A stretch of DNA of 21,527 bases from a virus. Shown in pieces: positions 28 to 21,527 of this stretch. Location of the stretch: positions 1 through 21,527 of IMG/VR virus record IMGVR_UViG_3300032677_000189; one strand, written 5' to 3'. Under the pieces are notes generated by a model, which was not told the origin of the DNA, ran no database searches, and saw only the letters and a list, made by a program, of their open reading frames with translations. Made by a program: the position numbers and the translations under genes. The stretch's first letter is position 1; each line of letters begins with the position of its first letter.

Positions 28-996
28 TCATTTATCTGTAGAATTATCTTCATCTAAAACCTCTACCCAGGTATCTGGGGTAACACAGCAACTACGCAAG
101 TCACCAAACCATTTCTTTAAGAAAGGGATCATACCAGTATGCATGATTTCGCCACCCCTAATAGGACTACCAAGCGGACGGATCCTGCCTATTTCCAACC
201 CAATGCCTGCACGTTTGCTGGCGTATTTGGCCATCATTTCGCCTGAAGCAAATATGCTGTCTAGATCGTCGTCGCTACGTATGAGCACGCATGAACTAAA
301 CTGTTTGGTTGGAGTGCCCAAACCGGCTAAAACCGGTGTGGCCAACGTAAACAGCCCGTCAGATGCTGATTGATAATACTCCTTGATGTAACGCATGCGT
401 GCCGTGTTTGGTTCTTCTTTATGGAACACGGTGGCTGCGGCTATCATGTAACGTATCTGTGGGGTTTCATATATTTCTTTTGTTGCACGATTTCGAACCA
501 AATACTTTTCGATTAGTTGCTCAATGGCTGCGTAACCGTATTGCTCGTCCTTTTCATGATCGAGCATGTCATTCATTTTATTCCAGTCATCTTCCGAATA
601 CCATTCGAGAAGATCTGCCGTGTATAACCCGGCTTCCACGTTTCGTTTTACGATTGAATAGAGATGTGGAACTTCGTATGTCCCATACACATCCTTACGC
701 AGCATGCTCAATCGCTGCTTTCCTGCCACATATTGGTAGTTGGTATGGCCGATACCTGGATTGATATCTGCATCAATTAGATCAACTATTGCCCGCAGTG
801 TTATGCCGTCAATCTCCGTGGTCGGAATATTGTTGTAGAAATGTGGCTGCGCCTTGATTTCAATCATCGATTGGCTAACGTCGGCTATGTTTTTACATAC
901 CTTGGCAATCTGGGCCTGCCACTTTTCGATGTCAAGCAGCTCCTGGCGTCCATCCCGTTTGGTGACGTAAATTTCTCCCTGTCTATGGGTTACCAT
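28..996 (-). CDS. nrdA: Ribonucleotide reductase large subunit, N-half fused to a very short split-intein N fragment
   Basis: Class I ribonucleotide reductase alpha subunit, which makes deoxynucleotides for phage replication in the cytoplasm. Residues ~8-100 form an ATP-cone allosteric domain (YVTKRDGRQELLD). The catalytic-domain motif QFSSCVL carries the redox cysteine C236, followed by KRAGIGLEIGRIRPLGSPIRGG. The protein reads as NrdA up to RSC (residue 303), where a normal enzyme continues SQGGVRGG, the specificity-loop region. Here it instead continues with C304-VTPDTWVEV, a typical intein block A, and stops at residue 322. The gene is therefore the first half of a split gene. The C-half and intein C fragment would lie beyond the left edge. 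The ATG start is supported by AAGGA about 7 bases upstream. The enzyme identity is sure; the split-intein reading is strong but depends on the unseen partner. Confidence 0.93.
   Translation of the reverse strand: MVTHRQGEIYVTKRDGRQELLDIEKWQAQIAKVCKNIADVSQSMIEIKAQPHFYNNIPTTEIDGITLRAIVDLIDADINPGIGHTNYQYVAGKQRLSMLRKDVYGTYEVPHLYSIVKRNVEAGLYTADLLEWYSEDDWNKMNDMLDHEKDEQYGYAAIEQLIEKYLVRNRATKEIYETPQIRYMIAAATVFHKEEPNTARMRYIKEYYQSASDGLFTLATPVLAGLGTPTKQFSSCVLIRSDDDLDSIFASGEMMAKYASKRAGIGLEIGRIRPLGSPIRGGEIMHTGMIPFLKKWFGDLRSCCVTPDTWVEVLDEDNSTDK
31..87 (-). other. Split-intein N fragment in NrdA (19 residues)
   Basis: Codons for C304 to K322 of the nrdA N-half. Cys1 followed by VTPDTWVEV matches intein block A, which has a nucleophilic Cys and a D-T-x-V pattern. 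The fragment ends at TGA before any block B (TxxH) could appear, unlike canonical split inteins of about 90-100 N-terminal residues. Very short natural N fragments are known (AceL-TerL, VidaL types). The insertion point follows the conserved RSC of the NrdA effector-specificity loop. Confidence 0.7.
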
Positions 997-1608: not shown

Positions 1609-3315
1609 TTATGATTCAAGTTGTAAAAGCGTCAGTGTGACGGTAATGGCCGATGTTGAGCCACCATTATTATACACATTCATCTGTATATTGCTGTTGG
1701 GCGACGATTCGCTGCTGTAACCAATCACGGCAGGGCTGAAATACACGGTACCTGCGCCTGTTGTGATTGCTTCGGCAACCACTCCGCTGCCGGGAGTTGG
1801 GTCGGTATTGATGGATCTGCCTGCATCACTGGTCCTATCCGCAATGCTGGTATATACCGTAACCCATGCACCAAACGAGACTTGTATGCTATACAAGGCA
1901 TAACCTACATAACCCACCGCGGTTATGTTGGCACTCGACCCGGCAGTGAGACTACCGGTGGTTACGGCAACCGTGGTCCTGGCTGACAAGCTGTTGCCGC
2001 TGTAGCCGCTATAACCAGAATATCCACTGATGCCCGAATATCCCGAGGACGCAAAGGCACCATTGAGACCACTGTATCCGGAGTATCCACTGTATCCGGA
2101 ATGTCCGCTATATCCGCTATAACCTGAACCGCCAAGTCCATTATTTTGTTGTGCATCTATTATGAGATTGTTGGTACCATGATCAACCACTCCGGGTGCC
2201 AAAGAAAACACATCTCCTATGCTGGCATTTATGGTTGAAGAGGTTCCCCAGTATAGGCTTTTGACCGAGTCGGCCGTTCCTGTGTCGTAAAAGGTGTTGC
2301 CAATGCTTGTAACGCCGGGATTGCTGCTGGCGTCACCAACATAGATACCATAATTGGCGATTGTGTAAAATCGAGATTGCGTGACAGTTGTGTAGGATGG
2401 TCCATTATAAGTAGGTGCTAGCCCTGCGCCAATCCCTCGATATAGCGTGTGTAAACCACACCGGCTCAGGGTGGTATATTGCACAGGATCGTTCATTAAT
2501 AAGGCCGTGCTGAAATTCTGTATATCACAGTCGACCAATTGGGCATCGTGTGTGTAAACGGCATTGCCCATGGTTTCACAGGTAAATGCGGCGTCATTAC
2601 CGCCCGGAAATCCATCGTGCCATCCACCTACTAGCCATACCCTTTCAAATCTTACATGTGTATACCTTAACAATTGAACCGCGCTTATCTGCTGGTCATT
2701 GGTGTTGATTGCCATGTCGCGCACATGTATGTGTGTAGGAAGCAGTGCTCCGTTTAATCCTACGTTGGCATCGGTTTGACCCAGACTATCAACCGTTTGG
2801 AACATAAATGGCATCGACGTGCCACTGGCTGCCATTATCGTGGTTCCGCTTGATCCATCCCCGATCAGGCTTACATACGGATACAACAATATGGGACTGG
2901 CAATTAGATAGGTTCCTGCCGGAAAGAACAACGAGATTGCAGTGTTCCCATTGGCAGGATAGCCCTGCAACAGTTGTGCAATGGCAGCATTTATGGCAGG
3001 AGCATCATCTGTTACACCATCACCTACTGCACCAAAGTCCTTTATGCTGGCTATGTCGTCCAGCTTTGCTTGCAGGGTCCTCGATATCGCAGCGGTCAAG
3101 TCCACTCCGTTGGCACTGAAGATCGTGTTGATCAAGCTGGTGTTTTGGCTATATGCCGTTAAGACCTCAGTATTACCACCGTAGCCACTTGTATTTCCTA
3201 TAAACAATTGCCGTGTATCGAGACACCATCCAAATTCGCCTTCTGCCAGTGCAGCTGGCAGGTCTGCGTATACCCCTCTACGGTTTTGTATTCTTGATAT
3301 TGTTTGGATGGCCAT
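1609..3315 (-). CDS. Tail fibre or tail spike with pectate-lyase-like beta-helix and GYS repeats
   Basis: Likely receptor-binding or polysaccharide-contacting virion protein of 568 residues. Residues ~1-45 (RRGVYADLPAALAEGEFGW..LFIGN) match the N-terminal attachment module of many phage fibres. Residues ~90-385 begin with IKDFGAVGDGVTDDAPAIN, the classic opening of a right-handed beta-helix (Pectate_lyase_3) domain. Residues ~392-442 are a low-complexity Gly-Tyr-Ser linker. The C-terminal ~125 residues (YALYSIQVSFGAWVTVYT .. VTLTLLQLES) match a knob-like domain common at the ends of cyanophage fibre proteins. The start has GGAG 9 bases upstream. It is divergent from the CCA-adding enzyme gene. 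Whether the beta-helix is a lyase, a hydrolase or only a binding surface cannot be told. Confidence 0.85.
   Translation of the reverse strand: MAIQTISRIQNRRGVYADLPAALAEGEFGWCLDTRQLFIGNTSGYGGNTEVLTAYSQNTSLINTIFSANGVDLTAAISRTLQAKLDDIASIKDFGAVGDGVTDDAPAINAAIAQLLQGYPANGNTAISLFFPAGTYLIASPILLYPYVSLIGDGSSGTTIMAASGTSMPFMFQTVDSLGQTDANVGLNGALLPTHIHVRDMAINTNDQQISAVQLLRYTHVRFERVWLVGGWHDGFPGGNDAAFTCETMGNAVYTHDAQLVDCDIQNFSTALLMNDPVQYTTLSRCGLHTLYRGIGAGLAPTYNGPSYTTVTQSRFYTIANYGIYVGDASSNPGVTSIGNTFYDTGTADSVKSLYWGTSSTINASIGDVFSLAPGVVDHGTNNLIIDAQQNNGLGGSGYSGYSGHSGYSGYSGYSGLNGAFASSGYSGISGYSGYSGYSGNSLSARTTVAVTTGSLTAGSSANITAVGYVGYALYSIQVSFGAWVTVYTSIADRTSDAGRSINTDPTPGSGVVAEAITTGAGTVYFSPAVIGYSSESSPNSNIQMNVYNNGGSTSAITVTLTLLQLES
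1990..2140 (-). repeat. Collagen-like GYS tandem repeat region in the tail fibre
   Basis: This stretch encodes about a dozen Gly-Tyr-Ser triplets with minor variants (GHS, GIS, GLN), broken by a short GAFASS segment. The protein repeat is regular, but the codons vary (GGC/GGT/GGA, TAC/TAT, AGC/TCC/TCT/TCG/AGT), so this is not a simple DNA microsatellite. G-x-y repeats of this kind form extended or triple-helical linkers in phage fibres. Confidence 0.85.
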
Positions 3316-3401: not shown

Positions 3402-4565
3402 ATGAATGCAGACAACAACATATTGCTGGATATCAAACAGCTGGTTAAGCCTGGCTTGGAATCCCTGCGAAATCTTTTCCTGGCAAGAGGTCATGATATC
3501 CGGTTGGTCGGCGGTTGTGTGCGAGATTACATGTTAGGGATGCTACCAAACGATATTGATCTCTGCACGGATGCAACACCAGACGAGCAGGTTGCAATCT
3601 ACCAAACACATGACATCAGATACATTGAAACTGGGTTGCAACATGGTACCGTTACCGTGGTTCTGGATGGCGAAACGTACGAAATCACCAGCCTGCGTGC
3701 TGATGTAGAAACTGACGGGCGTCATGCCATTGTTGCCTACACTCGTGATTGGTATGTTGACCTGCAACGGCGTGATTTCACCATGAATGCCATGAGCTTG
3801 ACATTTGACGGAGAGCTGATTGATCCTTTTAATGGCTTGACGGATCTAAGAAAAGGTCTTGTGGCATTTGTGGGCGATGCGGAACAGCGAATCCAGGAAG
3901 ATTACCTACGCATCCTCCGCTGGTTCCGGTTTCGTGGTCGCTTTGGCATGAGCATGAGCTATTCCGCGCGCAGGGGCATTGAGAAACATGCAGCAGGCCT
4001 GGAAAAAATCAGCCGGGAAAGGGTGTGGAGCGAAATCGGAAAGATCTTGACCGGTAATTATGGGCCTTTTATCATGATAGAGCTGCACCAGATGGGCATT
4101 GGCCAACATATAGGCTTGGGCAACACGGTTGCTAACATTGTCGATGCAGAAGCGGTACATGCTATAACCAAAAATCCTGTTACCATCATGGTGGCGCTGT
4201 ATGAGCGGGAGGCCAGCAATATTCTCAGAAAATGGAAAGCAAGCCGGGCAGAAATCGATCTGGCGGTTTTTCTATGCACTGAGCAATATTCGGCCATCTC
4301 CCCGTTTAACTGGATGGCGGTATCTGGTATCAGCAGGGAATTGGCAATGGAGCTGGCTGCCCTAAGAGGCATGGACGGGTTTGACCGTGCTGTTCTGGCA
4401 GAGTGGGAAGTGCCGGTATTTCCTGTAACGGGTGACGACATCATCGCCATGGGGGTCAAGCAAGGACCCGAGGTGGGTAGGTTACTGTCGTCACTTAAAA
4501 TGTATTGGGCATCCAATAACTATACACCCACACGCTACGATCTTCTGGGGCAGTTGGATAAGTGA
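3402..4565 (+). CDS. cca: tRNA nucleotidyltransferase (CCA-adding enzyme), class II
   Basis: Adds or repairs the 3' CCA end of tRNAs in the cytoplasm. Motifs appear in the family order: LVGGCVRD (residues 35-42, nucleotide-binding GG and arginine), DIDL with metal-binding D51 and D53, TDATP, then RRDFTMNAM (123-131), DPFNGLTDL (141-149), and QEDYLRILRWFRF (165-177). The C-terminal FPVTGDDIIAMGVKQGPEVGRLL matches the tail domain typical of alphaproteobacterial enzymes. At 387 residues it has near-normal length, so it looks intact. No SD precedes the ATG. It is the first gene of a plus-strand island among minus-strand late genes. A poly(A) polymerase role cannot be excluded, but class II CCA motifs fit better. 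Confidence 0.92.
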   Translation: MNADNNILLDIKQLVKPGLESLRNLFLARGHDIRLVGGCVRDYMLGMLPNDIDLCTDATPDEQVAIYQTHDIRYIETGLQHGTVTVVLDGETYEITSLRADVETDGRHAIVAYTRDWYVDLQRRDFTMNAMSLTFDGELIDPFNGLTDLRKGLVAFVGDAEQRIQEDYLRILRWFRFRGRFGMSMSYSARRGIEKHAAGLEKISRERVWSEIGKILTGNYGPFIMIELHQMGIGQHIGLGNTVANIVDAEAVHAITKNPVTIMVALYEREASNILRKWKASRAEIDLAVFLCTEQYSAISPFNWMAVSGISRELAMELAALRGMDGFDRAVLAEWEVPVFPVTGDDIIAMGVKQGPEVGRLLSSLKMYWASNNYTPTRYDLLGQLDK

Positions 4566-11860: not shown

Positions 11861-12178
11861 CTATATTGAAAATGAAGTACCACAGCCACAGGTGCTTGTA
11901 GCGCCTGGAATATCCACGGTGAAATATGAACCGCCTAAATCGGTTTTATAGTCAATCGTGGACCCTTGTATGATGTCCATGCTCACCGCATCTATCAATA
12001 ATTTACCATTGACAAAATCATACACGGTGTCGTCATCGTCTTGAATGCCGGTTATATCCCAAGATTTTGAAAAACCTTGGCAGCCGCCACTGCGTATGGC
12101 CAAACGCACCATGGAACCTGTTTGTGCGCATAGACTGCTTATTTGCTTTTCAGCTGACTGTGTTATGATCAGCGACAT
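11861..12178 (-). CDS. A-type Fe-S cluster carrier (IscA/HesB-like)
   Basis: A 105-residue protein of normal family length. It has the three conserved cysteines, C33 in GGCQGF and C97, C99 in the C-terminal STCGCGTSFSI, as well as the DAVSMDIIQGSTIDY core and GSYFTV before the tail. Family members hold and hand over Fe-S clusters or iron to target proteins. IscA/HesB-like genes are known auxiliary genes in aquatic T4-like phages. The ATG overlaps the end of the upstream gene by 10 bases, and no strong SD is seen, so coupling is likely. It is the last gene of a late-promoter operon of probable structural or assembly genes, so it probably acts late, perhaps in a virion component or for a host enzyme. 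Confidence 0.93.
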   Translation of the reverse strand: MSLIITQSAEKQISSLCAQTGSMVRLAIRSGGCQGFSKSWDITGIQDDDDTVYDFVNGKLLIDAVSMDIIQGSTIDYKTDLGGSYFTVDIPGATSTCGCGTSFSI

Positions 12179-18132: not shown

Positions 18133-18870
18133 GTGGCACATTTCACAGCCGAAGATTTTAGAAGCATGGTTAACAGGCTTAATGAGTATGCGGGCTTGAT
18201 TTCAGAAGAAGATTCTGTTCCTGACGACAATAGCGAGCCAGTCACCAATATGCTCACAAAGCCAGCTGGATTACAAAAGATCTCAGGAAGTCTTGACACG
18301 GATGCTCTCATTACAATACTAGAAATTCCAAGCAATTTGCAAAGTGATTTCAAGAGTGCCATAACAGCATTGCAGGACGATAATCCGCAGCTGAGTCCAG
18401 GACAGGCGTTGGCCTTGGCAACCGCATTTGATCATCTTTTGAGGGCAAGTCCTAACGCAAAAGCACAAACACTGGGAAAGATCAGGGCAGTCGGGGCTCC
18501 CTCGGTAACCGAATCTGAGGAAGATGTTACATCCGCAGATACTGGCATTGACAAGGTTGTTAAAACCATACAAATGGCCAGCGATGTTAGTCCTGTATCC
18601 AAGTTGCAGGCTACAAAACTTGTCAAGTATTTGCTCAACGGCATAAAGGATCGCCACCCAGATGGTGGCATGAACCATGTTATGTCGGGAATCGTATCTG
18701 CAATAGAATCTGCAAAATCGGGAAACGAATCAGAAGCGCTGAAACACATCAGCAGCATGGTAAATCATGTGGAAGGCGATCGCCACGCTATTGATACCGC
18801 AGCATTACCTAACATAGTGGTATGCCTCATGCTGCTGATAGGTGATATGCTTCAGCACCCACACGATTAA
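18133..18870 (+). CDS. Helical hypothetical protein, probable late gene, 245 residues
   Basis: Function not recognised. It begins VAHFTAEDFRSMVNRLNEYA and is acidic and helical, with low-complexity acidic patches (SEEDSVPDDNSEP, ESEEDVTSADTG) and a hydrophobic C-terminal segment (NIVVCLMLLIGDML). GTG at 18133 is chosen because GGAG lies 6 bases upstream. A TTG twelve bases earlier in frame precedes that SD and is unlikely. An exact late promoter drives it. The N-terminal helix resembles in style those of neighbouring probable virion proteins. Its stop shares the TTAA at 18867-18870 with the stop of the convergent helicase C-half. Confidence 0.75.
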   Translation: MAHFTAEDFRSMVNRLNEYAGLISEEDSVPDDNSEPVTNMLTKPAGLQKISGSLDTDALITILEIPSNLQSDFKSAITALQDDNPQLSPGQALALATAFDHLLRASPNAKAQTLGKIRAVGAPSVTESEEDVTSADTGIDKVVKTIQMASDVSPVSKLQATKLVKYLLNGIKDRHPDGGMNHVMSGIVSAIESAKSGNESEALKHISSMVNHVEGDRHAIDTAALPNIVVCLMLLIGDMLQHPHD

Positions 18871-19376
18871 CGTCTAACCAATGACGTTAACGCACTGAGA
18901 TCCTTGATGCCTTTTGTGGTATCATTTGTGTTGGGCTTGGCATCATCCTTTTTTGCTGCTGCTGAATTTTTACGTCGCAGGTCTGCAAACTTATCGGCTG
19001 TGCTTACTGCTGTTAATGCCTGTACATCATCGTCAGCATTAAAAATCCTCAAAGTGTTTGGATCAAACCCTAGATTAACCTTGCTGCCGACACCGCTGGA
19101 CGAACGTGTTTTCAAAAACTGCACTTGATATTGGCCACGTTCTTTCATAGCAGCGGATGCAAAAATTGAAATCACATTGTCAGCCGTTTGGATTTTAGAA
19201 ATACCTCCCGATATATGGCTATGATCGTGTTCTTGTTCTTGAACCGACGAGTTGTGAGTTAATATGTTGTTAGCATAAAATAAATGGTTGCCAGTAACTG
19301 ATATATCTAGTGTATCTTGGATACCGATATATTCTATAGATTCAATTTCATCTAGCTCTGTAAAAAGTTGATACAT
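18867..19376 (-). CDS. gp41-type replicative helicase, C-half, with split-intein C fragment at its N-terminus
   Basis: A 169-residue protein. Residues 1-42 are a split-intein C fragment ending ANNILTHN, and S43 begins the helicase part (SSVQEQEHDHSHISGG). The exteins match the C-terminal RecA core of T4-like gp41/DnaB helicases: DHSHISGGISKIQTADNV, then FASAAMKERGQYQVQFLKTR and SSSGVGSKVNL. After trans-splicing with the N-half (20490-21527) it would rebuild the ring helicase that unwinds DNA at the phage fork. The ATG lies inside the end of the endonuclease gene (25-base overlap) with AGGA upstream, so translation is probably coupled. It ends convergently at TTAA with the plus-strand gene. 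Confidence 0.93.
   Translation of the reverse strand: MYQLFTELDEIESIEYIGIQDTLDISVTGNHLFYANNILTHNSSVQEQEHDHSHISGGISKIQTADNVISIFASAAMKERGQYQVQFLKTRSSSGVGSKVNLGFDPNTLRIFNADDDVQALTAVSTADKFADLRRKNSAAAKKDDAKPNTNDTTKGIKDLSALTSLVRR
19251..19376 (-). other. Split-intein C fragment (42 residues), gp41-8 type
   Basis: Starts MYQLFTELDEIESIEYIGIQ and has block F (DTLDISVTGNHLFYANNIL) and block G (THN with terminal Asn), followed by Ser as the +1 nucleophile. It closely resembles the IntC of gp41-8 as I recall it, and the insertion site (QLNR before S) is the same. Confidence 0.93.
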
Positions 19377-20467
19377 TCTTCAAATGTCCTTTGTGGATTG
19401 TTAACATAATCATATTCCCATACTGTCAATGTTTGGTAATTCTTGCTTTGATAGTACGCAATTCGGTTGGCATCTTTGTCCCATATATCTTTTGCTGACC
19501 ACATCGGCCGATATGGGTGCGGCGTGTCAGTAGATTCAAACAATGTCGGATTAGCATGTATACAGTCTCCATTAAACTCTATTATACGACCTTTGTAAAA
19601 TAAATCTGGACAAATACACCGAGTACCAATAATCGTTTGCCATTTAGCCGGAAGCTGCCATACCATTTCGTTTATACCATAGTAATATAAATCCGGTATA
19701 ATCTTTAAACAAGACATTATTACCTCCAATGACCACTTACTTGCTGTAAATTTATTAGGCAATGTCTTATTTCTGTACGCATTATATTTGGTTGTTCCTA
19801 GATCGTTGCCGTATCTACTAACAAAATATTCTAAAGATCTTGATTTAGCTACTTTACATCGCAGTCGACCTTCTTCTTCTCCATATTTTTCAATATATCC
19901 GGCTAAACTAACCTTATATCCCTGTGCCCTTCGCTTTTTGTCCCAGATCTGATAACCAAGTTCCTCGCCATGCTTCTCTACAAACCATGCTAAATTTCTC
20001 TTGGCATATTTCCCTCTATTAGATTTGTAAGTTTCTGACCTCTTTTTGCAATACAAATTCCATTTAACTATACCATCTTCTTGTCCATATCTAGCAATAT
20101 AGTTCTCCAGCGATGCTCCAAGTTTAGACAACCGTTCTGCCGCGTTAACTTCACCATACTTGGCTTGATATTTTTCTTTAGTCTGTATGCAACTGTTAGT
20201 CTTTATCGCATGTAGCCTTGTCCCGTGTATATGACCGTATCTAGCAATATAAACATCAAGAGACGATGCATCGTGTGTAGTTAGTAATTTGGCTATAGGC
20301 CATTGAACTTTCAATGTCTCTAAATCTATACCAAGAACCAGATATCGTGTTAATAAATCTTTAAACTTTCGATACTCGGCTCTTGATATATCTATATCGT
20401 TTAATATCAGTTTTTGATCAAATGCCAGATCTGGTAATTTCTTACAGAACGAGAAATATGTAGGCAT
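19352..20467 (-). CDS. Free-standing homing endonuclease, Vsr-like EDxHD type, inside fractured gp41 gene
   Basis: A 371-residue endonuclease lying between the two gp41 halves. Residues ~73-235 hold about six repeats of the form Y-x-x-[RK]-[YH]-G-x(3)-G (at ~73, 100, 123, 162, 191 and 215), a likely modular DNA-binding array. Residues ~285-360 are a Vsr-like nuclease domain: CPDLFY (D288), IIEFNGDCIHANP (E297, D301, H304), and later LTVWEYDY. This EDxHD arrangement was described for the family found in fractured phage genes (I-Bth0305I relatives). It would cut intron/intein-free gp41 alleles and spread the insertion. The ATG at 20467 is chosen for its AGGAGA; the longer frame overlaps the N-half stop. 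The gene is visibly more A/T-rich than its neighbours, a sign of separate origin. Confidence 0.9.
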   Translation of the reverse strand: MPTYFSFCKKLPDLAFDQKLILNDIDISRAEYRKFKDLLTRYLVLGIDLETLKVQWPIAKLLTTHDASSLDVYIARYGHIHGTRLHAIKTNSCIQTKEKYQAKYGEVNAAERLSKLGASLENYIARYGQEDGIVKWNLYCKKRSETYKSNRGKYAKRNLAWFVEKHGEELGYQIWDKKRRAQGYKVSLAGYIEKYGEEEGRLRCKVAKSRSLEYFVSRYGNDLGTTKYNAYRNKTLPNKFTASKWSLEVIMSCLKIIPDLYYYGINEMVWQLPAKWQTIIGTRCICPDLFYKGRIIEFNGDCIHANPTLFESTDTPHPYRPMWSAKDIWDKDANRIAYYQSKNYQTLTVWEYDYVNNPQRTFEECINFLQS

Positions 20468-20489
20468 AAATGTTCTCCTGTGTTGCAGT

Positions 20490-21527
20490 CTATTTATGCC
20501 GTACAATTAGTTTATCACCAACTTTCAGTCCTGTTTCTAAACTTTTTTCTCCGTTACTTGTTGGGAACACATGATTATTACTACATGTAATAGTCTTTCC
20601 AGATTTTGTTGTGATCTTAAACACTGGTCTAGGACTAACTTTGGTTACATCAGTTACGCTAACAGGTCCTTCATCTGAATCTAGCCAATCGCCGACATTG
20701 ACATCTTTGATTTGGATAGTTTTACCATTGGCAGTTACAGTCGAGTCAAGAGTAAGGCAACGATTCAACTGTGCAGCGGTTTGGCCGATCATCTGTCGTT
20801 CAACCATTAAACCTCGCAGTTCTTCCGTAACAAACTTATCCTTTACGAATAGATTGCTTGGGTCAATCCTTTTGTTGTTAGGAAACAACAGATCCAGATA
20901 ATCGACCACCAAGACATCTGGTTTTTTCTGTGTTTCAATTTCATATGTTTTTAGATACGCTTTGATATCGTTACATGTACTGCCCTGTGGAAGCTGTTTA
21001 ACATGCAATCCACCGCTTTTATGCCCAGCTTGACGCACACGTATTTCTACCTCATCCAACTTTCTAAATATTTCCTTGGTTGGAACCTCACTCAACATGC
21101 TGTCCATTCGCATTGAGCACAGCTCTTCGCTTAGCTCAAGCGTGATGTAAACCACGTTAAGACCTTTCACTGCAAGATTGATGGCAATATTTTGCAGGAA
21201 CAATGATTTCCCTACACCAGAGCCTGCACACCAAATGGTTATTTCTCCTCGATTAACACCACCGTAAAGCTTGTCATCAACATCACGCCATCCCGTGCTG
21301 ACCTGTCCGTTGTTGTCTTTTATTCGCAGCAGTCTTGCCCTAGGGTCTTCAAAGTAGTTTGTTCCAACATCGCTTTGTAGACTGATCAGTATGGCTTCTC
21401 TTACTCGCTTTTCAACCTCACCATAATTGCCTTTTTCAATGAGATCCACCGCACTGAGCACGGCCTCTGCCAGAGCCCTATTCTTACAAAACTCTTCAAT
21501 TTCATCTAAAAATGCGTCTTGATGCTG
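20490..21527 (-). CDS. gp41-type replicative helicase, N-half, fused to split-intein N fragment (5' end outside window)
   Basis: The frame is open to the right edge, so the true start is not in the window. It shows the helicase core: Walker A CAGSGVGKS (21203-21230 region), then NVVYITLELSEELCSMRMDS, Walker B VLVVDYLDLLFP, and DKFVTEELRGLMVERQMIGQ. It runs to AAQLNR, where the intein N fragment begins, and stops at TAG. The match is to T4-like gp41/DnaB-family 5'-3' helicases, which form hexamers at the fork. Alone it lacks the distal RecA-core motifs, so it should need trans-splicing with 18867-19376 to work. Confidence 0.95.
   Translation of the reverse strand, partial: QHQDAFLDEIEEFCKNRALAEAVLSAVDLIEKGNYGEVEKRVREAILISLQSDVGTNYFEDPRARLLRIKDNNGQVSTGWRDVDDKLYGGVNRGEITIWCAGSGVGKSLFLQNIAINLAVKGLNVVYITLELSEELCSMRMDSMLSEVPTKEIFRKLDEVEIRVRQAGHKSGGLHVKQLPQGSTCNDIKAYLKTYEIETQKKPDVLVVDYLDLLFPNNKRIDPSNLFVKDKFVTEELRGLMVERQMIGQTAAQLNRCLTLDSTVTANGKTIQIKDVNVGDWLDSDEGPVSVTDVTKVSPRPVFKITTKSGKTITCSNNHVFPTSNGEKSLETGLKVGDKLIVRHK
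20491..20498 (-). promoter_or_regulatory. Late promoter octamer CATAAATA for the endonuclease gene
   Basis: An exact NATAAATA match on the minus strand that overlaps the last codons and stop of the intein N-half. It lies 23 bases before the endonuclease ATG, with the SD between. It would give the endonuclease (and the overlapping helicase C-half) a late transcript of its own. Confidence 0.65.
20493..20759 (-). other. Split-intein N fragment (89 residues), gp41-8 type
   Basis: Cys1 in CLTLDSTVTANGKTIQIKDV (block A), then VGDWLDSDEGPVSVTDV, and a block B-like TITCSNNHVFPT with its histidine. It ends GLKVGDKLIVRHK at the stop. Length and sequence match the gp41-8 IntN as I recall it, and the partner IntC lies at 19251-19376. 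Confidence 0.94.

What the first reader, a model, noticed from the sequence alone, without database searches (positions are those of the whole stretch)
18867..21527. Fractured gp41 helicase gene: intein N-half, endonuclease, intein C-half
All three parts are visible and complete at the junctions: AAQLNR|Cys1 (89-residue IntN), an EDxHD endonuclease gene, and IntC (42 residues) ending HN|S. The layout and insertion site match gp41-8, first described from environmental DNA, here with its genomic surroundings. Splicing would rebuild QLNR-SSVQEQEHDHSHISGG, in line with normal gp41.
Basis: partly seen in the sequence, partly recalled or inferred. Interest (0 to 1): 0.65.

Follow-up and report, generated by a model that had tools for sequence, protein, structure and literature searches.

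The report
Mobile split intein in phage helicase
A phage helicase gene is broken in two by a self-splicing protein element with a DNA-cutting enzyme gene between its halves; this arrangement is already known, but here the whole element is found letter-for-letter identical in a clearly different phage, which indicates that it moves between phages as one unit.

Summary
On the minus strand, a gp41/DnaB-type helicase N-part ends AAQLNR|Cys1 and runs into an 89-aa IntN; a 371-aa endonuclease gene follows; then a 42-aa IntC ending THN|SS, joined to the helicase C-part. Removing the 1,509-bp insert gives the uninterrupted sequence seen in 80 intein-less relatives. The endonuclease passes profile and fold tests for the EDxHD/Vsr homing family (I-Bth0305I). 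This is a new member of a known kind, the 'fractured genes' of Dassa et al. 2009; gp41-8 itself could not be compared from a held source. (2) Relatives show empty, intact, decayed-nuclease, nuclease-free split and fused forms at this site. (3) Residue +1 is Ser in 66/66 occupied but 25/80 empty alleles; the identical tract covers it. (4) The same phage has a second fractured gene, nrdA, with a 19-aa IntN. Splicing and DNA cleavage are inferred, not shown. The nearest cultured relatives by helicase are jumbo phages of Sinorhizobium, Agrobacterium and Pseudomonas, not cyanophages.

The parts
20760..21527 (-). N-extein: helicase (gp41/DnaB-like) N-part, Walker A GSGVGKS, ends AAQLNR; 5' end outside the window
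   Evidence: Pfam DnaB_C 8.5e-14; PHROG 19 9.7e-50; complete N-part in L003
20490..20759 (-). IntN, 89 aa (CLTLDSTV...IVRHK) plus TAG stop; Cys1 at 20759-20757
19352..20467 (-). EDxHD/Vsr-like homing endonuclease gene, 371 aa; helical YG-repeat N-part (residues 1-235), nuclease domain (241-371) with D288, E297, D301, H304, D332
19251..19376 (-). IntC, 42 aa (MYQLFTELDE...ILTHN); its ATG overlaps the HEG 3' end by 25 nt
18867..19250 (-). C-extein: helicase C-part starting SSVQEQEHDHSHISGG
   Evidence: PHROG 19 2.5e-07; empty alleles
19210..20765 (-). tract identical (0 differences in 1,556 bp) to phage contig L003: cassette plus 6 nt left and 41 nt right flank
28..996 (-). second fractured gene in the same phage: nrdA N-part ending LRSC|CVTPDTWVEVLDEDNSTDK (19-aa IntN)

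Best explanation
This is a fractured helicase gene. A naturally split intein (89-aa IntN, 42-aa IntC) sits at the QLNR|S site of a phage gp41/DnaB-type helicase, with an EDxHD (Vsr-fold) homing endonuclease gene between the halves. The two helicase parts are translated separately, the intein halves associate and trans-splice, and one intact helicase results (inferred from complete splicing residues and conserved junctions). The endonuclease cuts intein-less alleles at or near the insertion site (inferred from fold, active-site residues and empty alleles). Repair copies the whole IntN-HEG-IntC cassette, with short stretches of flanking DNA, into the cut gene. The transfer itself is shown by an identical cassette in a diverged phage; that the endonuclease drove it is inferred. 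The co-converted right flank also supplies the Ser+1 that splicing needs. Once fixed, the endonuclease decays and is deleted, leaving a nuclease-free split intein or, by deletion and fusion, a contiguous mini-intein.
For: Anatomy and junctions. Empty alleles with uninterrupted reading across the site. Intein match to the solved gp41-1 intein (contiguous relative L017 at 1.2e-19). NG86 dN/dS 0.14-0.37 for IntN and IntC against L015/L017. HEG profile hits the I-Bth0305I catalytic domain 3R3P at 3.2e-06; the model's C-domain matches Vsr 1CW0 at Z 10.7 and 3R3P at Z 9.7 (rmsd 2.4 A, 93 of 97 residues). D288, E297, H304 and D332 are invariant in 18 same-site endonucleases. Window against L003: 1,509/1,509 cassette identity, flanks 76% and 80%, whole-contig mean 72%, best other 300-column stretch 89.7%; synonymous sites of the N-extein are saturated. 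Second, older pair L162/L164: cassette 91.5%, flanks 73% and 80%. HEG loss: L165 (745 bp) against L167 (1,682 bp), rest 99.7% identical; L165 keeps a HEG C-terminal remnant. Ser+1 in 66/66 occupied against 25/80 empty alleles.
Against: No splicing or cleavage has been measured. The L003-type flank with the cassette is known from one contig only (one search found the cassette junction in three contigs, two of them the window's own lineage). All contigs are fragments, so a second helicase copy elsewhere cannot be excluded. The donor and direction of transfer are unknown, and the endonuclease target is inferred.
Confidence: 0.93

Rival explanations
1. The identical cassette in L003 is an assembly chimera between two phages in one sample.
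For: The L003-type flank with cassette is known from a single contig, and metagenome assemblies can join strains.
Against: Identity drops 6 nt left of Cys1, with mismatches at 20766 and 20769, so no shared k-mer bridges the left junction to an empty allele. If L003 truly carried a slightly different cassette, identity could be overstated, but a close cassette would still be there. A second, independent pair (L162/L164) shows a cassette much closer than its flanks.
Confidence: 0.05
2. The gene is a decaying pseudogene: the halves no longer splice and the phage relies on another helicase.
For: All contigs are incomplete.
Against: All splicing residues are intact (C1, S60..H63, penultimate His, Asn, Ser+1), intein dN/dS is below 0.4, the exteins are conserved, and no contig showed more than one DnaB_C gene, including 127-kb and 236-kb contigs.
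Confidence: 0.03
3. The two helicase parts work as separate subunits without splicing (genes in pieces, as reported for Aeh1 nrdA).
For: A two-part nrdA retains function without a self-splicing intron in phage Aeh1 (PMC3653736).
Against: Here the breakpoint carries complete, conserved intein halves with selected splice residues, and contiguous relatives such as L017 keep the same intein in one reading frame.
Confidence: 0.03
4. The island of identity came from ordinary homologous recombination between phages, not endonuclease-driven homing.
For: Phages recombine readily and flanking homology exists on both sides.
Against: The tract ends at the cassette borders (6 and 41 nt) rather than at random within flanking homology, and an intact endonuclease gene lies inside it.
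Confidence: 0.12

Closest known systems
Fractured gp41 genes with split inteins from environmental DNA (gp41-1, gp41-8; Dassa et al. 2009, not held; cited in PMC7090010 and PMC10448857)
   Same: Split intein halves on two helicase parts with a free-standing endonuclease gene between (from memory of that paper); typical split site; recalled gp41-8 site NR|S
   Different: Set in a longer phage contig; identical cassette in a second phage; relatives at the same site in every state from empty to fused; gp41-8 sequence could not be compared from a held source
Aeromonas phage Aes123 polB (gp43B1 / VSR endonuclease / gp43B2; JN377899)
   Same: Same three-gene layout with short overlaps; VSR endonuclease related to the window's (26% identity)
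   Different: DNA polymerase host gene, cysteine-less intein (PMC11923092), another insertion site
Shigella phage ESh36 gp41 (ON528746)
   Same: Cultured T4-like phage with gp41 in two parts carrying intein halves and a gene between them
   Different: Other insertion site (DIAE|C); the gene between has an EYDGRAFH stretch, not compared further; record marked UNVERIFIED
I-Bth0305I (EDxHD homing endonuclease; 3R3P; PMC3943268)
   Same: Catalytic fold and active-site residues
   Different: I-Bth0305I is a mobile-intron protein; the window's enzyme is encoded between intein halves and has a long helical YG-repeat N-part
F-CphI and psbA intron, 'collaborative homing' (PMC6083498)
   Same: A free-standing endonuclease spreads a separate self-splicing element that protects its target
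   Different: F-CphI uses the Endo VII motif and works with a group I intron; here the endonuclease gene lies inside the inserted unit

Membership tests
Fractured gene with split intein (Dassa 2009 type) | Two host-gene parts ending and starting with IntN and IntC, with no in-frame link | tested here: met
   over 20 in-frame stops between the halves
Fractured gene with split intein (Dassa 2009 type) | Endonuclease gene between the intein halves | tested here: met
Fractured gene with split intein (Dassa 2009 type) | Precise joining restores the uninterrupted host protein | tested here: met
   80 intein-less alleles align across the junction
Fractured gene with split intein (Dassa 2009 type) | Trans-splicing activity | not testable with these tools
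   needs co-expression
Split intein of the gp41-1/gp41-8 group | Sequence relationship to the gp41-1 intein and splicing residues C1, S..H, HN|S | tested here: met
   IntN hits 6QAZ at 1.6e-09; contiguous relative L017 at 1.2e-19 over 121 residues; residues read
gp41-8 allele | Insertion at NR|S and close sequence identity to gp41-8 | tested here: inconclusive
   Site read directly, but no held source gives the gp41-8 sequence; resemblance rests on memory
EDxHD (Vsr-like) homing endonuclease | Catalytic-domain sequence and fold related to I-Bth0305I/Vsr | tested here: met
   3R3P E 3.2e-06; 1CW0 Z 10.7, 3R3P Z 9.7
EDxHD (Vsr-like) homing endonuclease | Conserved E, D, H, D residues | tested here: met
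   D288, E297, H304, D332 invariant in 18 sequences; D301 is D or E
EDxHD (Vsr-like) homing endonuclease | Cleaves the intein-less allele and drives homing | tested here: inconclusive
   Cleavage not testable; transfer seen as an identical cassette in a diverged phage

The most novel reading that the evidence does not exclude
The whole fractured unit (IntN, endonuclease gene, IntC) is one mobile element with its own homing cycle. It moves between diverged phages by co-converting a short flank that carries the essential Ser+1, so even Ala+1 or Gly+1 alleles can be invaded. Some contiguous mini-inteins at this site arise by deletion of the endonuclease and fusion of the split halves, the reverse of the usual view that split inteins come from broken contiguous ones.
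Probability: 0.5. Interest if true: 0.6.

Novelty: new member of a known kind. Interest (0 to 1): 0.45.

Why it matters
Split inteins of this group are among the fastest known and are used widely as protein-engineering tools (PMC7090010), but in the literature held here I found no natural case of a fractured cassette caught moving. The window/L003 pair, the same-sample empty allele L022 and the HEG-deleted pair L165/L167 give ready material to test homing of a split intein directly. The fused relatives bear on how split and contiguous inteins turn into each other.

Tried and rejected
Reading the HEG from TTG 20506: rejected in favour of ATG 20467. Pfam and NCBIfam on the window's HEG alone gave nothing above cut-off, and a single-sequence PDB search gave only chance hits; the 18-row profile was needed. 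AlphaFold model of the contiguous L017 intein without an alignment was poor (pLDDT 44) and was not used. Looking for gp41-8's sequence in papers failed. The genome-contig scan gave only two helicase relatives in one Neomarinimicrobiota MAG, matched over the helicase part only (residues 2-256). Foldseek alone gave no hit with E below 0.001 for the HEG model; the family assignment rests on the profile and VIA-align results. The tree of 46 inteins is weak in many branches (quick method, 7 of 43 branches starred), so the count of fusions is only a minimum. Stop-codon read-through joining IntN to IntC was rejected.
Full report
OBSERVATION. The window is a whole 21,527-bp IMG/VR virus record. The helicase N-part ends ...GQTAAQLNR and continues into an 89-aa IntN starting with Cys1 (20759) and ending at TAG 20490. 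A 371-aa endonuclease gene follows (ATG 20467, AGGAG upstream; stop 19352). A 42-aa IntC begins at ATG 19376, overlapping the endonuclease gene by 25 nt, ends ILTHN, and runs into SSVQEQEHDHSHISGG and the helicase C-part (stop 18867). More than 20 stops lie between the halves in their shared frame, so they are separate polypeptides. The helicase assignment rests on Pfam DnaB_C (8.5e-14) and PHROG 19 for both halves. The intein assignment rests on matches to the solved gp41-1 intein.

HOST GENE AND PHAGE. The best cultured relatives of the N-part are jumbo phages Phosso, Atu_ph07 and PA5oct (48-53% identity), not cyanophages. In L003 the N-part is complete (341 aa before Cys1). No cassette-bearing contig tested (up to 236 kb) showed more than one DnaB_C gene; L149's contig gave no match at all, so sensitivity is imperfect.

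EMPTY SITES. A query made of the joined exteins found at least 80 viral contigs with an uninterrupted helicase across this site, the closest 98% identical in protein (L020) and one (L022, 94%) with the same sample number in its name as L003. This fixes the insert as 20759-19251, 1,509 bp.

ENDONUCLEASE. Across 18 same-site enzymes, D288, E297, H304 and D332 are invariant. A profile of these matches the catalytic domain of I-Bth0305I (3R3P) at 3.2e-06. The AlphaFold model (mean pLDDT 79, mostly 84-96 from residue 271 on) aligns residues from about 241 to 371 to Vsr (1CW0, Z 10.7) and 3R3P (Z 9.7, rmsd 2.4 A over 93 of 97 residues). The N-terminal 235 residues are helical with repeated YG motifs, probably DNA-binding (inference). 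The EDxHD label is therefore tested and met; cleavage is not shown.

HOMING. Contig L003 (30.4 kb) is a different phage: shared regions average 72% identity and no 300-column stretch outside the cassette exceeds 89.7%. Yet from 20765 to 19210 there is no difference in 1,556 bp: the full cassette plus 6 nt on the left and 41 nt on the right. N-extein synonymous sites are saturated between the two. A recent transfer of the whole unit is the simplest reading. A chimera is unlikely because the left junction shares only 6 nt of flank. A second, older pair, L162/L164, shows cassette 91.5% and flanks 73% and 80%. Direction and donor are unknown. Only three contigs carry this exact junction.

SER+1. 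Occupied alleles have Ser at +1 in 66 of 66 cases (46-48 non-redundant); empty alleles have Ala 39, Ser 25, Gly 13, others 3. The two empty alleles closest to the window have Gly. The identical right-hand tract covers this codon, so co-conversion can supply the residue that splicing needs. A comparable co-conversion of a blocking proline is described for archaeal MCM inteins (PMC10643990). Relatedness among sequences makes the Fisher value (about 1e-16) only indicative.

STATES AT ONE SITE. Among 46 distinct inteins at this site and its variants, 28 have a long gene between the halves, 13 are split without an intact one, and 5 are contiguous. Most of the genes between are EDxHD-like; others look different (L110/L111/L123, of which L110 hits DUF7487; L112/L114/L117; L155). 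L165/L166 (745 bp) and L167 (1,682 bp) are 99.7% identical apart from a deletion that removed most of the endonuclease, leaving its C-terminal end. L104 has an interrupted and L107 a degenerate endonuclease. L017 has the same kind of intein in one frame with an internal Met-Tyr-Gln-Leu-Phe, the start of IntC in its split relatives, and lies next to split L015 in the tree. Contiguous forms need at least three changes on the tree (two forced by starred branches). This pattern fits the homing cycle known for contiguous inteins (PMC8966425, PMC7765530), run here by a fractured gene. That fusion follows splitting is an inference from the relic start codon and the tree, with weak branch support.

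SELECTION. NG86 dN/dS is 0.14-0.37 for intein halves against L015 and L017, consistent with splicing being maintained.

KNOWN OR NEW. The arrangement is the 'fractured gene' of Dassa et al. 2009 (not held; cited in PMC10448857, PMC7090010). Cultured examples with the same layout are Aeromonas Aes123 polB and, apparently, Shigella phage ESh36 gp41 at another site. Membership in the gp41-8 group could not be tested against the real sequence. I file this as a new member of a known kind. What adds interest is the natural evidence of movement of the unit and the full series of states; no held paper that I found reports such movement for a fractured intein, but the library is partial.

SHOWN AND INFERRED. 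Shown: anatomy, empty sites, EDxHD fold (predicted model plus profile), identical cassette in a diverged phage, endonuclease loss and fused states. Inferred: trans-splicing, cleavage of empty alleles, endonuclease as the driver of transfer, order of split and fused forms.

Noticed in passing
window 28-996 (-); L191, L192-L198: nrdA of the same phage is also fractured: LRSC|C starts a 19-aa IntN (CVTPDTWVEVLDEDNSTDK), followed in L191 (99.9% identical to the window over 4.4 kb) by a 387-aa ORF with a GIY-YIG-like start (by eye; no Pfam hit) and then an ORF with the rest of the intein (MVKTKKIQIKDL...; Pfam Hint/intein hits). L192 and L197 have the same intein contiguous; L195 and L198 have other ORFs there.
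   Followed up: partly
L017:187-1330: A second split intein in the same helicase gene, at Walker A (GSG|C...HN|SGKS), with an IntN of only about 21 aa and a long IntC (Pfam intein hit), resembling atypically split inteins.
   Followed up: partly
L162 and L164: Second pair with cassette (91.5%) much closer than flanks (73% and 80%), an older transfer.
   Followed up: partly
L118, L122, L128, L152, L178 and Shigella phage ESh36 (L190): Related IntN at another helicase site (AE, GE or SE before Cys1) with split arrangement; L116 at an SGF|C site.
   Followed up: no
window 11861-12178 (-): Phage-encoded A-type iron-sulphur cluster biosynthesis protein (Pfam Fe-S_biosyn 5.7e-13).
   Followed up: no
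window 3402-4565 (+): Phage tRNA nucleotidyltransferase (PolyA_pol 8.7e-30, PHROG 2244), on the strand opposite to most genes.
   Followed up: no
window 1609-3315 (-): Tail fibre/spike with pectate-lyase-like domain, Mtd N-terminal-like match (below cut-off) and collagen-like GYSGYSG repeats.
   Followed up: no
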